NCBI GenBank assembly: GCA_019455045.1 | Contig: JACFND010000022.1 | Coordinates: forward strand, 8,774 to 40,964 | DNA from: Flavobacteriia bacterium | GTDB taxonomy: Bacteria > Bacteroidota > Bacteroidia > Flavobacteriales > Weeksellaceae | Direction: 5' to 3' | DNA length: 32,191 bases | In this document: piece by piece, positions 24,210 to 32,191 of the stretch | Layout of the letters: each line of letters begins with the position of its first letter | How positions within the stretch are numbered: position 1 is the stretch's first letter | Program-made: the position numbers and the translations under genes | Notes under the pieces: model-generated | What the model saw: only the letters and a program-made list of their open reading frames with translations | What the model was told of the DNA's origin: nothing | Database searches by the model: none

Positions 24210-24248
24210 TAAAAAAACTTTTCCAAAGTTTAGAACTTTGGAAAAGTT
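24210..24248 (-). terminator. Long perfect hairpin, probable terminator of the M20 peptidase gene
   Basis: Perfect 15-bp arms (AACTTTTCCAAAGTT and its complement, 24216-24248) flank a 3-nt loop. On the minus strand the hairpin is followed by seven T residues and lies 30 bp beyond the stop codon at 24279. The same AACTTT..CCAAAGTT palindrome type is often repeated in Bacteroidota genomes, so it may be both a repeat and a terminator. Confidence 0.75.
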
Positions 24249-28205: not shown

Positions 28206-28826
28206 TTACCATTTCCAAAAAGGTGCTTTGCCGAATTTCAATCTTATCTTTTTTGCTTTCTTAAATTCTAAAAAACGCTTCTCATTCATGGGACCATATA
28301 TCGAATCTTTCTTTTTGTTGATGATATAATAATTGACCTGGGATTTAAAAATATTTTGATAAAAGGCCTCATTTTCAAATATCTTTTTTGCCACTTCTTG
28401 ATAGGTTTTTATGGAGTCCTTTGTCAGTTGAAATACGGAATCCAAATCTTTTTTGTACAGCTTACTGATTTGTTTATCGGTAACCAAATGGGGAAAAGAG
28501 ATGACAGGTGAATCATTTTCGTAGTGATAGGCATATAAGATTCGCAAACTACTTTCAATTCTCTCCAGCATTAAATCTCGATTCGGCTTTTGCATGGCGA
28601 TAATCCAGGAGCCATTTTCACCATACTTATCAACATCAGAATAGACCACAATAGTATCAAAGGTTTTATATCCCCAATGATTGTTATTTGATTTGTAGAT
28701 TAATGTACCATAGGGGTAACCGATATCCACTGATGTAAAGTCGTCTAAAAAATAATATCTTTCTTTATCTGATTGACAATTCAATATGAAAATATCTAAG
28801 AGCAGGAAAATTACAATTTTCTTCAT
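28206..28826 (-). CDS. Putative lipoprotein next to RHS tip, candidate immunity protein
   Basis: 206 residues, function not recognised. The N-terminus MKKIVIFLLLDIFILNC looks like a lipoprotein signal with C17 as the acylated residue; the residues before it (ILN) are a loose lipobox, tolerated in Bacteroidota. The next residues QSDKE resemble, but do not exactly match, lipoprotein export signals that send lipoproteins to the cell surface in this phylum. The rest is a charged, lysine-rich soluble domain. The start overlaps the stop of the RHS fragment by 4 bp (28823-28826), so the two are translationally coupled. Together with the strong AT bias this fits a cognate immunity or accessory protein. 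That role is inference from position only. Confidence 0.7.
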   Translation of the reverse strand: MKKIVIFLLLDIFILNCQSDKERYYFLDDFTSVDIGYPYGTLIYKSNNNHWGYKTFDTIVVYSDVDKYGENGSWIIAMQKPNRDLMLERIESSLRILYAYHYENDSPVISFPHLVTDKQISKLYKKDLDSVFQLTKDSIKTYQEVAKKIFENEAFYQNIFKSQVNYYIINKKKDSIYGPMNEKRFLEFKKAKKIRLKFGKAPFWKW

Positions 28827-30445
28827 TTTTTTAATTGAATTTGTGGATTTTTATAGTGAATATTATAAGTTCTAAACTTGTGATGATATTGCTCCATAGT
28901 CCTAGGGCGTCCGAAATCGGTAAGTAAATTTCTCACAAAAATTGCTATACTGGTATTTTTCAATATGTCATAATGGTAATCCTGATCCAACACTTCGACT
29001 ATCCCCTTTTCCACACTAATTATTTTAAAACTGGTTCCACCATAAGTAGCAGCAGTTTCATAAGGTAATTTTCGAAATGCTTCTACTGTCCCAATATAAA
29101 ATTCGTCTCCATCCTTGAGACCTTTTGGTATTTTTAATCCGGTCCAATCAATGTATTGATTATCAACTGTTATATCTTTTGCTTCAGTTACCCCCCAGAG
29201 ATCCGCTTCATCCTTTTGTAGTTTTCCATCACCATTTAAGTCCCAAGGTTTCGGGTCTTTCTGCTGACCCTTATCTCCTTTCTTCGGTTTTCCATTGTCA
29301 AAATCTCTTTCTGTATCGGTTACATTCTCCTCACCTCCATAATTTACATCGCCTCCCTCCGGATCCTCCGCACCTTCTGGCAAATTTAGCTTAATCCGCC
29401 ACCCGAGAAAATCAAATTCAACATAATTCGAACTTTCATCAAAGAACAGATCAATTTCTATATCTCCTTCCCATAGTCCGGTAGGATCATTAAAAGCAAC
29501 AGGGTTGTTGAAGGCAAATCTGTATGGACTCCAGTCAGGAGAAACCTCGGAGAGCAGATCCGGGTTGTGAAATCTGCCGACTGCCGGGTCATAGTTTCTG
29601 AAATCCATCGCATACCAATCCAGGTTATTGTCATCCTGCCATTCGCGGTTGTTGTATTTGTAATCATAACGCGCATGAAGTGAAACGACATCCAATGGGT
29701 TTTCCGGATTCACTGCTTTGTCTGTTTCATTGTTTATGGCTTCAATTCTTCCGGTTGGTGCTGAATATTTTTGATGCATTAATCCGAAAGGATAATAATG
29801 ATTTTCTTCCAGTATTTTCAGTTTCCCTGTCAGGTGATCCATTGAGTAAGACAGTCGTACATTACCCAAGTGGTCGGTATAGTTAAAAACATAACTGTAA
29901 GCATAGCCGGTAGGCGGAGCGCCGGGTGTAATATTTCCGGCCGGTGTTGCTCTCACATATCCCTCCGCAGTAGGAAAGAAATTCAGCATTTCACCCGCAT
30001 ACTGAAAACCGTCTAAGTAATCCACTTCTATTCTCACTTCGGGGGTGGCAGTTTCCTCAATAACCGTCTTTTTCAGTTTTACGCCTGCCGCATTGTAGGT
30101 ATATTCAATTGAGTTTGAATTTTCAAAAATAATCAACTCAGGCAGATTGAGATAGTTGTATGTGATAGAGGTGATTCCTTTGTTTCTGTCCTTTACCATT
30201 GAGCTTCGCTCGGTTTCTTCGCAAAAGACTTTCTCAAAGTCTTTTGCTCGAAAATCGTTTGCATCGTATTCATAATCGTCCAATGCCGGATTGGTATTGC
30301 CGTCCACAAAGCCCATGCTGTTTCCGGTGCTTACCGCATCGCTAACATTCAGAAGCAGGTTTGAGTTTCCGTTGCCACCCGAATAATCGTAGCTTAGTAT
30401 ATCCATGTCTATTCTCATTTCATTATTTGAGATTTTCATTTTCAA
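28823..30445 (-). CDS. Displaced RHS core with distinct C-terminal tip (orphan toxin module)
   Basis: 540 residues with no signal peptide. YD-repeat sequence begins at once (IDMDILSYDYSGGNGN, YEYDAN, ITYNYLNLPELI), followed by the RHS core (YDYKYNNREWQDD, NYDPAVGRFHNPD, SPYRFAFNNPVAFNDPTG) ending at residue 324. The tip (326-540) has an EF-hand-like loop DLNGDGKLQKDE (402-413) after a Lys/Asp-rich linker, and a C-terminus with MEQYHHKFRTYNIHYKN. I recognise no toxin family in it. The frame opens with TTG at 30445, overlapping the previous stop by 4 bp; ATG at 30439 is the alternative. Residues 64-82 are an in-frame insertion made of palindromes. Without an N-terminal export region it is probably a cassette that donates its tip to the full-length RHS gene. 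Confidence 0.8.
   Translation of the reverse strand: MKMKISNNEMRIDMDILSYDYSGGNGNSNLLLNVSDAVSTGNSMGFVDGNTNPALDDYEYDANDFRAKDFEKVFCEETERSSMVKDRNKGITSITYNYLNLPELIIFENSNSIEYTYNAAGVKLKKTVIEETATPEVRIEVDYLDGFQYAGEMLNFFPTAEGYVRATPAGNITPGAPPTGYAYSYVFNYTDHLGNVRLSYSMDHLTGKLKILEENHYYPFGLMHQKYSAPTGRIEAINNETDKAVNPENPLDVVSLHARYDYKYNNREWQDDNNLDWYAMDFRNYDPAVGRFHNPDLLSEVSPDWSPYRFAFNNPVAFNDPTGLWEGDIEIDLFFDESSNYVEFDFLGWRIKLNLPEGAEDPEGGDVNYGGEENVTDTERDFDNGKPKKGDKGQQKDPKPWDLNGDGKLQKDEADLWGVTEAKDITVDNQYIDWTGLKIPKGLKDGDEFYIGTVEAFRKLPYETAATYGGTSFKIISVEKGIVEVLDQDYHYDILKNTSIAIFVRNLLTDFGRPRTMEQYHHKFRTYNIHYKNPQIQLKK
29781..30072. repeat. Duplicated RHS segment, copy 1
   Basis: Aligns without gaps to 31900-32191 (offset 2119), with about 30 differences by eye, mostly silent. 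It encodes KTVIEETATPEV through ENHYYPFGL. Left of 29781 similarity stops abruptly. On the right, copy 2 continues to the window edge. Confidence 0.9.
30200..30256 (-). repeat. In-frame palindromic insertion inside the displaced RHS gene
   Basis: 57 bp (19 codons) between YEYDAN and MVKDRNKG, where the usual Bacteroidota RHS pattern reads continuously. It contains a perfect 12-bp inverted repeat with 3-nt loop (30221-30247, arms GCAAAAGACTTT) and a smaller GAGC-TTC-GCTC hairpin (30201-30211). Both reading-frame continuity and RHS motifs on either side are preserved. Confidence 0.7.
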
Positions 30446-30864
30446 TAATCTTCCAAAAACTTCCTTATTTCTTCTTTATCCACTGGTATTGGCAATTCTT
30501 TCCAGCCTTCGGGTGGTGCTTCTGTAATGCTATCAGGGACAACAAGAAACGGCAAAAGCACAGAATTCTTAGGTCTTAAACTGTCAAAAACGACAAAATA
30601 TTTTCCCAAAGGTAAATGTGCATATTTTCCTCTGCGTTCATAATAAAACCTGCCATTCATCTTTTTATCTTCTAAAAAATAATGGTAGCGATAGTGATTG
30701 CTTCTCGTTTCGTTTCTTTGTTGAGTAATTTCTCCTATGGTATATTTTTGGTTTTCATATATTTTAGATAAATTGTTTTTTGCATAAATATTTCCAAAGT
30801 ATATAAAAATTAAAAAGACGATAAAGCCAATAATAACCATTATAACATCTTTAAGAGTAGGCAT
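30442..30864 (-). CDS. Single-pass membrane protein between RHS modules, candidate immunity protein
   Basis: 140 residues, not recognised. One N-terminal hydrophobic helix (about 7-26, VIMVIIGFIVFLIFIYFGNI) is followed by a soluble basic domain with strands such as YTIGEITQQRNETRSNHYRYHYFLEDKKMNGRFYY and GKYFVVFDSL. The N-in/C-out orientation would put the domain in the periplasm. It starts 2 bp after the stop of the first RHS gene and overlaps the next RHS start by 4 bp. Its place directly downstream of a toxin tip is that of an immunity gene, but Bacteroidota RHS loci also carry such small membrane proteins as accessory genes. It is clearly AT-rich. Confidence 0.65.
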   Translation of the reverse strand: MPTLKDVIMVIIGFIVFLIFIYFGNIYAKNNLSKIYENQKYTIGEITQQRNETRSNHYRYHYFLEDKKMNGRFYYERRGKYAHLPLGKYFVVFDSLRPKNSVLLPFLVVPDSITEAPPEGWKELPIPVDKEEIRKFLEDY

Positions 30865-30866
30865 AA

Positions 30867-32191
30867 TTATTTAAATCGTGAATTAATAATTTCAGAATTC
30901 CCTTGTGTTTGAAAAGATTGAATACCATTTGAAAAAATGAAACTTCCAACCTTACTACTCCAGTCTGAACTTACTGCTGAAGTCCCCACTCCGGACAAGT
31001 TACCTAAATAGCCGCCGATTACTTTGGCTGAAGACTTTTGATAATCAACAGGCTTATCCTTTAAAATATTATTTTGTAAAACATCAGCCCCTTCACTCAT
31101 TATTGGCGACAATGCAGTCCCGGCTTTTCCCGGCAACACAGACCCGGCTACGGCATTACCCCAGTTCACGTCTCCGGTTATTGCATACTGAGCCGTAGCA
31201 TCAATCGCTATTTTTCCTGCTGTTTTCAAAACATATAAACCAAATTTGGTCTCAGCTATTACCGAGCCATACAAGGCTACTTCAGGAGCCAATACAACTG
31301 CAAATACTCCCACTGCAAACCATTCACCTTCTCTCTTTGCCAGTTGCATTTTTATATATCCGCCTCTGTTTTCAGGCGATAGCATATTTCTGTATGCACC
31401 GTGAATACTTTTTTCTCCATCGGCACCAAAAAGTCCTCTTGTTGCATTTAACCTGGGTAAGAACCCCCATGAAAATACAGAAGAACTTTCGGTTTTGGGT
31501 TTCTTTTCAGGAGCTTTAGCCGTAAGAACTGCTGTTTCCAAAACAATCGGCTCGTCCTCATTAAAGATATCATCTCCCGGGCCTACCTGCATTCCATCCG
31601 GGTCAATAAAATATACCGGATTATTGAGTGCATAGGTATAAGGACTGTGAGAAAAGTATTTAGGAGCCATCGGGTCTGTGACATTCCACCTCCCAATCGT
31701 CGGATCATAATTCCTTGCCCCATAGTCGTAGAAGTTCAACCCCAACTCATCTTGGAACTCTTTGCCGTTGTATTTATACTGATACTCCATTCTTGTCACA
31801 TAATCAAGCACAGGCGGCAGACCGGGTTCGGGTTCTATTCCGTCTCCGGGGTTTCTTGAGAAATCCAGTTTTGAGCCGGTTAAATAAACTTCGTGCCTCA
31901 ATCCAAATGGATAATAATGATTTTCTTCCAATATTTTGAGTTTTCCTGTCAGATGATCCATTGAGTAAGACAGCCATACATTGCCAAGATGATCGGTATA
32001 GTTAAAAACATAACTGTAAGCATAACCGGTAGGCGGAGCGCCGGGGGTAATGTTTCCGGTTGGTGTTGCTCTGACATATCCCTCGGCAGTAGGGAAGAAG
32101 TTCAGCATTTCACCGGCGTACTGAAAACCGTCCAAATAATCCACTTCTATTCTCACTTCGGGGGTGGCAGTTTCCTCAATAACCGTCTTTT
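30867..32191 (-). CDS. RHS-repeat protein, C-terminal part (open at window edge)
   Basis: The frame runs to the window edge without a start: residues before the internal GTG at 32156 read KTVIEETATPE, matching the other RHS copy. So the N-terminus lies outside. The RHS core is YQYKYNGKEFQDELGLNFYDYGARNYDPTIGRW, then SHSPYTYALNNPVYFIDPDG, which marks the end of the shell and usual autoproteolysis site. The tip of about 240 residues (coding 30867-31589) starts at MQVGPGDDIF. It contains an ETAVLTAKAPEKKP linker common in Bacteroidota RHS proteins and a small-residue-rich hydrophobic stretch (EWFAVGVFAVVLAPEVALYG). No nuclease, deaminase or protease signature is seen. Cells would release such a tip into neighbours or the envelope (family knowledge); the activity is unknown. 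Confidence 0.85.
   Translation of the reverse strand, partial: KTVIEETATPEVRIEVDYLDGFQYAGEMLNFFPTAEGYVRATPTGNITPGAPPTGYAYSYVFNYTDHLGNVWLSYSMDHLTGKLKILEENHYYPFGLRHEVYLTGSKLDFSRNPGDGIEPEPGLPPVLDYVTRMEYQYKYNGKEFQDELGLNFYDYGARNYDPTIGRWNVTDPMAPKYFSHSPYTYALNNPVYFIDPDGMQVGPGDDIFNEDEPIVLETAVLTAKAPEKKPKTESSSVFSWGFLPRLNATRGLFGADGEKSIHGAYRNMLSPENRGGYIKMQLAKREGEWFAVGVFAVVLAPEVALYGSVIAETKFGLYVLKTAGKIAIDATAQYAITGDVNWGNAVAGSVLPGKAGTALSPIMSEGADVLQNNILKDKPVDYQKSSAKVIGGYLGNLSGVGTSAVSSDWSSKVGSFIFSNGIQSFQTQGNSEIINSRFK
31900..32191. repeat. Duplicated RHS segment, copy 2
   Basis: Partner of 29781-30072. It runs into the window edge, so the duplication may be longer. Confidence 0.9.

What the first reader, a model, noticed from the sequence alone, without database searches (positions are those of the whole stretch)
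30200..30256. In-frame palindromic element inside an RHS coding sequence
57 bp (19 codons) interrupt the otherwise normal motif YEYDAN / MVKDRNKG. The insert is two hairpins, one with perfect 12-bp arms, and keeps the frame. This resembles the in-frame Rickettsia palindromic elements in principle, in a different phylum.
Basis: partly seen in the sequence, partly recalled or inferred. Interest (0 to 1): 0.6.

Follow-up and report, generated by a model that had tools for sequence, protein, structure and literature searches.

The report
Two-hairpin insert in RHS gene cassette
A short piece of DNA that folds into two hairpins has been spliced into a spare copy of a bacterial RHS (toxin-delivery type) gene, and a related piece sits at exactly the same spot in RHS genes of another bacterial genus, so it looks like a small targeted insertion rather than a widespread repeat.

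Summary
The insert is real. On the minus strand, 19 codons (30200-30256) stand where three RHS paralogues in the same genome have two (Gly-Asn), a net gain of 51 bp in frame. It holds a perfect 12-bp hairpin and a 4-bp hairpin. 34 of 40 RHS places covering this codon lack it. The same element occurs at the same RHS codon in five Vaginella-group RHS copies, where it breaks the frame. The hairpin arms differ only in matched pairs. The RHS flanks group by genome, not by insert, and are less alike than the insert (63-66% against 80%). A second, longer hairpin insert of similar layout sits at another fixed RHS site in three genera. Best reading: a small non-autonomous palindromic element that repeatedly enters RHS cassettes at fixed sites. 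One old insertion with gene conversion of the flanks is the close rival. The mobilising enzyme is unknown; the in-frame state may be chance (about 9%).

The parts
30200..30256 (-). 57-nt insert (19 codons, DFRAKDFEKVFCEETERSS) replacing GGAAAT (Gly-Asn) of the YD-repeat motif YDANGNMVKD
30221..30247 (-). hairpin 1: perfect 12-bp arms (30221-30232 / 30236-30247), triloop GAG on the coding strand
30201..30211 (-). hairpin 2: GAGC-GAA-GCTC on the coding strand (4-bp stem, GAA triloop)
   Evidence: GAAC-GAA-GTTC in Vaginella
28823..30445 (-). host ORF: 540-aa truncated RHS cassette (RHS core from about 50 aa before the insert, Rhs_assc_core at residues 258-324, then a variable C-terminal domain); TTG start uncertain, lacks the long N-terminal shell of the 1211-aa C2 copy
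28206..28826 (-). 206-aa ORF directly downstream, position of an RHS immunity gene (inferred from position only)
   Evidence: no family match
30442..30864 (-). 140-aa ORF between two RHS cassettes, position of the immunity gene of the upstream cassette (inferred)
   Evidence: no family match
30867..32189 (-). next RHS cassette upstream, cut by the contig end; its held part begins downstream of the insert site, so it says nothing about it

Best explanation
A short, non-autonomous palindromic element (54-56 nt: GATTTTCGAG - long hairpin - GAAGAAACC - short hairpin with GNA triloop) has inserted into a spare RHS cassette. Shown: it is a derived insert at one codon of the YD repeat; related copies occupy the same codon in Vaginella-group RHS cassettes; the hairpins are kept by paired changes; the insert is in frame here and out of frame there. 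Inferred: the element reached the same RHS target at least twice, moving without its flanks, either by an enzyme supplied in trans or by recombination limited to the element. It survives because truncated RHS cassettes tolerate inserts, and in this copy the product is a 17-residue longer turn of the RHS shell. It is not a genome-wide repeat family.
For: Insert absent from 34 of 40 RHS places that cover the codon, present in 6. Same site in four Vaginella massiliensis copies and one Weeksella sp. FF8 copy. Among 14 arm pairs, 4 differ between the two types; all 4 differ on both sides and 3 stay paired (chance that the right-arm changes fall on the same pairs: 1 in 1001), and one further outer pair is missing on both sides. 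Insert 43/54 identical, against 34-38/53 upstream and 171-179/271-277 downstream for the RHS flanks. The RHS-flank tree puts the window copy with its own C82 paralogue (99/88) and the other copies in the Vaginella clade (100/98): at least 2 changes forced, 0% of 200 bootstrap trees with one. A second insert type behaves the same way at another RHS site (58/61 identical between genera against 36/54-59 for the flank), and shares a GAG-triloop hairpin followed by GAAAC.
Against: No mobilising enzyme was found: Y1_Tnp is present in the window genome but absent from the three Vaginella-genus genomes searched. No target-site duplication; 5-6 nt of target are lost. No copy outside RHS. The insert-versus-flank difference is only marginal over the whole insert (Fisher p 0.058) and clear only for the ends, chosen afterwards (p 0.004). 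Gene conversion among RHS cassettes could produce the same tree from one old insertion.
Confidence: 0.5

Rival explanations
1. One old insertion in an ancestral RHS cassette, inherited in both genera; gene conversion with intact RHS paralogues later made the flanks genome-specific while the insert stayed, its hairpins kept by intrastrand correction or selection.
For: Same codon, same lost GGAAA, same codon phase on both ends (both types read EETERSS before the RHS frame resumes). RHS cassettes within one genome are near-identical (93% window/C82, 90-97% among four of the five Vaginella-group copies).
Against: The insert is more alike than the flanks, although it should be the freer sequence. 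The second insert type is 95-100% conserved while the flanks of several pairs fall to 61-75%.
Confidence: 0.37
2. A dispersed repeat family of Rickettsia palindromic element or REP type that happens to have landed in RHS.
For: Palindromic, in frame, encodes a peptide. REPs inside ORFs are reported in several species (PMC3733652, passages). A dispersed repeat with a related short motif exists in G034 (9 places), but its link to this element is weak.
Against: Single copy in the genome. 3 of 320 family genomes have the pattern, every match at the RHS site. No GTAG or CGTC tag.
Confidence: 0.06
3. A functional hairpin (attenuator or terminator) that silences the orphan RHS cassette.
For: Strong hairpin in the transcript; the Vaginella copies bring stop codons.
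Against: No stop codon and no T-run in the window copy; weak fold in Vaginella (-5.4 kcal/mol); 34 of 40 RHS places lack it, truncated cassettes among them.
Confidence: 0.04
4. Ordinary length variation of an RHS loop without any element.
For: RHS shells are repetitive and vary in length (general knowledge, recalled).
Against: 57 nt with two hairpins, paired changes, identical site in another genus.
Confidence: 0.03

Closest known systems
Rickettsia palindromic elements (RPE)
   Same: Palindromic DNA inserted in frame in a protein gene, adding a peptide (described in passages of PMC10969869).
   Different: RPEs are described there as about 150 bp, ten families, 44 insertions in unrelated genes of one genome; here 57 bp, one copy, RHS only, and out of frame in the other genus.
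REP / GTAG- and CGTC-tagged palindromes, including intragenic ones
   Same: Short palindrome; some lie inside ORFs; CGTC repeats are reported in Bacteroidetes (PMC3733652, passages). Hairpin 2 has a GAA triloop like palindromes flanking this genome's Y1 transposase genes.
   Different: No GTAG or CGTC tag, not high-copy, not found beside the Y1_Tnp genes, and Y1_Tnp not detected in three Vaginella-genus genomes.
MITEs
   Same: Small, non-coding in origin, palindromic, presumably non-autonomous.
   Different: No clear terminal inverted repeats, no target duplication, no parent transposon found.
Homing (site-specific) elements
   Same: Same conserved site in a conserved gene in different lineages; a GIY-YIG element does sit in other RHS cassettes of this genus.
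   Different: No nuclease in the 57-bp element; the GIY-YIG element has other ends and sits at other RHS positions.

Membership tests
Rickettsia palindromic element | many copies in one genome, in unrelated genes | tested here: not met
Rickettsia palindromic element | in-frame insertion into protein genes | tested here: inconclusive
   in frame in the window, out of frame in the Vaginella-group copies; chance of an open in-frame insert about 0.09
Rickettsia palindromic element | sequence similarity to RPE families | not tested
   no RPE sequence was fetched; the GTDB pattern scan lists no Rickettsia
GTAG/CGTC REP | GTAG or CGTC tag at the end of the palindrome | tested here: not met
GTAG/CGTC REP | high copy number, mostly intergenic | tested here: not met
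REP mobilised by a RAYT (Y1_Tnp) | Y1 transposase in the genome, flanked by the same repeat | tested here: not met
   Y1_Tnp present in the own genome, but only chance-length matches to the element in the Y1 loci (11 nt at most); none in 3 of 3 Vaginella-genus genomes
MITE | terminal inverted repeats | tested here: inconclusive
   outer 8 nt GATTTTCG against GAGCTTCG, 6 of 8, by eye
MITE | target-site duplication | tested here: not met
   flanks AACG / ATGG; 5-6 nt of target replaced
RHS orphan/silent cassette (host gene) | truncated RHS core with a variable C-terminus and a following small gene | tested here: met
   Rhs_assc_core TIGR03696 E 1.1e-13; truncated relative to the 1211-aa C2 copy; orphan modules as described in PMC3150448 passages

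The most novel reading that the evidence does not exclude
RHS genes of Flavobacteriales are homing ground for a family of small hairpin elements: at least two structural relatives (this one at the YDANGN codon, a longer one before PFGLKH), each tied to its own conserved RHS site in two or three genera and spreading without flanking DNA. They would be targeted mobile palindromes specialised on polymorphic-toxin cassettes.
Probability: 0.28. Interest if true: 0.66.

Novelty: new variant of a known kind. Interest (0 to 1): 0.4.

Why it matters
If the recurrence at fixed RHS sites is real, it gives a case of a tiny ORF-less palindrome with gene-level target choice, in the gene family known for rearrangement. 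It would offer a testable system for how sub-100-bp palindromes move and how in-frame peptides arise inside proteins.

Tried and rejected
Dispersed copies in the own genome: none. Relatives: BLAST in 99 genomes gave only Vaginella over the full length; the other listed hits are short and of chance grade. Two-ended pattern in 320 family genomes: 3 with matches. GTDB scan: 14 stretches, 3 of them real, 11 judged chance by lack of a matching hairpin. 3' module in 395 order genomes: the own genome plus one hit, G433, judged chance because the hairpin arm does not match, with 4 control matches. Viral contigs: 0, 1 and 0 stretches for three patterns (the single stretch L201 was not examined). Plasmids: none for the window query; weak scattered hits for the Vaginella query. 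Phages: none. Rfam: nothing credible (one match, rliB, below its gathering score). Pfam gave no match to the four ORFs tested. RAYT as mobiliser: rejected for want of Y1_Tnp in Vaginella-genus genomes. Idea that the 57 nt are the joined ends of a GIY-YIG element: GIY-YIG loci carry other ends. A covariance model was not built because the only alignment obtained (A1) put the two stem types out of register. Structure prediction was not run. RPE source paper PMC186582 is not held. Papers were searched; nothing on RHS-site palindromic inserts was listed there.

Full report
What is there. On the minus strand the ORF 28823-30445 (540 aa, TTG start uncertain) is a truncated RHS cassette with an Rhs_assc_core domain (TIGR03696, E 1.1e-13). 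Between YEYDAN and MVKDRNKG lie 19 codons, 30200-30256. In the same genome the longer C82 and C2 RHS genes and the C72 copy read YDANGNM, YDENGNM and YDLNGNM, so 57 nt replace GGAAAT or its equivalent and the net gain is 51 bp. The insert holds a perfect 12-bp hairpin with a GAG triloop and a 4-bp hairpin GAGC-GAA-GCTC. Such perfect 12-bp inverted repeats are rare: two places in the window, 0.15 on average in 20 simulations.

Not a genome-wide repeat. The exact hairpin occurs once in the 2.59-Mb genome, 99.4% complete. BLAST at E<=10 finds only RHS flanks and chance-length matches. The 3' module with 2 mismatches gives ten matches against four of its control; apart from the insert the nearest has one mismatch. 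The two-ended pattern TTTCGAG-N12..42-GAAACCGARCGAAG is found in 3 of 320 genomes of the family: this one and two of genus g28. A GTDB scan gave 14 stretches; three are the Vaginella massiliensis and Weeksella sp. FF8 copies, and 11 show no corresponding hairpin. In 395 genomes of the order the 3' module is found only here and once in G433, where the short hairpin arm does not match. Vaginella belongs to the Flavobacteriales, Bacteroidota.

Same site in another genus. G032 carries four copies and G358 one, all in RHS cassettes, directly after the same Asn codon. They are two nucleotides shorter and out of frame. Of 40 distinct RHS places covering the codon in what was fetched, 6 have the insert (window, four G032, one G358) and 34 do not (grouped by hand from the printed rows). 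The RHS search behind this sampled 59 genomes, 14 of which had RHS matches at E<=1e-20. Extra stretches were fetched around matches, and G358 was added because of its insert, so the 6 of 40 is not a frequency estimate.

Paired changes. With the stems in register, 4 of 14 arm pairs differ between window and Vaginella. All four differ on both sides; three remain Watson-Crick (G-C to A-T twice, C-G to T-A) and one becomes G.G. If the two arms changed independently, the right-arm changes would fall on those same pairs once in 1001. The outermost C-G pair of the window stem is missing on both sides in Vaginella, which accounts for the length difference. This is a comparison of two sequence types only, and the register was set by hand.

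Insert versus flanks. The insert is 43/54 identical between the types (42/54 for one copy); the RHS flanks are 34-38/53 upstream and 171-179/271-277 downstream. Over the whole insert the difference is marginal (Fisher p 0.058; binomial 0.01 against 0.64); for the ends only it is p 0.004, a subset chosen afterwards. A tree of up to 67 residues downstream, 26 rows, pairs the window copy with C82 (99/88) and puts the five other inserts with the uninserted Vaginella gene (100/98). The label needs 3 changes, starred branches force at least 2, and no bootstrap tree of 200 has one. Either the element arrived at the same codon twice, or gene conversion rewrote the flanks around an old insert. I favour the first only moderately.

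A second insert of the same kind. Vaginella RHS copies also carry about 120 nt before PFGLKH. Its 61-nt core is identical in four Vaginella places while the downstream 60 nt are 41-58 of 57-60 alike; it is 58/61 identical in G001 (genus of the window), where the flank is 36 of 54-59. A third genus (G022, C43) has it 82% identical over 77 nt, again directly before PFGLKH. Read on the other strand it runs GATTTTGGAAATT-GAG-AATTTCC-AAATCGAAAC-TTGC-CAGC-GTA-GCTG, the layout of the window insert: long hairpin with GAG triloop, GAAAC, short hairpin with GNA triloop. In 872 kb of held sequence (overlapping loci included), 18 distinct GAG-triloop hairpins of 6 bp or more were found. Those followed by GAAAC were the window insert, four context variants of this second insert, and one unrelated 6-bp hairpin (L094). 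In reversed control sequence 0 of 19 carried both flanking motifs, but that control counted a stricter condition (both motifs) that only the window insert meets. The shared layout is therefore a lead, not a proof of common origin.

Is the window copy still a protein? Downstream of the insert, window and C82 differ at 21 synonymous and 4 non-synonymous codons of 135. Frame-broken Vaginella-group copies against the uninserted V. massiliensis paralogue show 14/7, 32/53, 23/20, 18/11 and 11/11. The contrast with the window pair is significant for three of the five (p 0.017, 0.026 and 6e-5) and not for two (p 0.30, 0.13). Two of the comparisons (C8b and G358) run past the alignable part or meet the second insert in the paralogue, so this is only suggestive. 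A chance insert of this length and composition is open and in frame with probability about 0.09.

Mechanism. Shown: insertion into an RHS cassette at a fixed codon, hairpins maintained, loss of 5-6 target bases, no target duplication. Inferred: non-autonomous, moved by an unknown enzyme or by short-tract recombination. The Y1 transposases of this genome have other palindromes at their sides and none was detected in the three g28 genomes. GIY-YIG elements sit in RHS cassettes of this genus (own C72, G001 C40) at two other positions, with CTGTCAAATAA-type ends unlike the insert. RHS cassettes therefore collect small elements, probably because truncated copies tolerate them.

Comparison with the known. 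RPEs are described in a 2024 review as about 150-bp elements inserted 44 times in unrelated genes of R. conorii, many in frame (PMC10969869, passages). GTAG/CGTC REPs also occur inside ORFs in several species, and CGTC repeats occur in Bacteroidetes (PMC3733652, passages including part of the abstract). Intragenic palindromes are thus known. What differs here is single copy number, confinement to RHS, and recurrence at the same codon in another genus. Orphan RHS modules are well described (PMC3150448, passages). None of the searches listed a paper on such RHS inserts; the library is partial.

Noticed in passing
L161 2118-2460 (own genome C72) and L160 1600-1900 plus L175 (G001 C40): A roughly 350-bp element encoding a GIY-YIG nuclease, with CCTGTCAAATAATTTTAAATTT at one end and TTATTTGACAGG or TTATTTGACGGG at the other, interrupts RHS cassettes at two different positions in two species of the genus; the G001 copy has a stop codon.
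   Followed up: partly
L160 2086-2300 (G001 C40): A different in-frame insert of 22 codons (TEARGSRIPVGALATQLGNNEQ) sits after YLDGFQ in an RHS gene and starts ACCGAGGCACGAGGTTCG; in G001 C47 its copy is fused to the second hairpin insert, with the RHS stretch between them missing.
   Followed up: partly
L063, L065, L066 (V. massiliensis), L159 (G001), L204 (G022): A hairpin insert of about 120 nt directly before PFGLKH in RHS cassettes of three genera; one V. massiliensis RHS frame of 778 residues ends at a stop codon inside it.
   Followed up: partly
L165 about 1500-1640 (G001 C57) and L158 about 1525 (own C26): A palindromic repeat with CACGCGATACAATCGCGCGG interrupts or abuts RHS cassettes.
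   Followed up: no
L212, L217, L221, L224, L227, L229-L232 (G034): Repeat with CGAAACTCGTTCCTCG at 9 places (7 exact) of one genome of the family, weakly similar to the start of the second RHS insert; its surroundings were only glanced at.
   Followed up: no
L185, L188-L191 (own genome): Five Y1 (REP-associated type) transposase genes above the family cut-off and one match below it; several are flanked by short palindromes with GAA triloops such as GACCTC-GAA-GAGGTC.
   Followed up: partly
window 24216-24245: The only other perfect inverted repeat of 12 bp or more in the window, between ORFs, probably a terminator.
   Followed up: no
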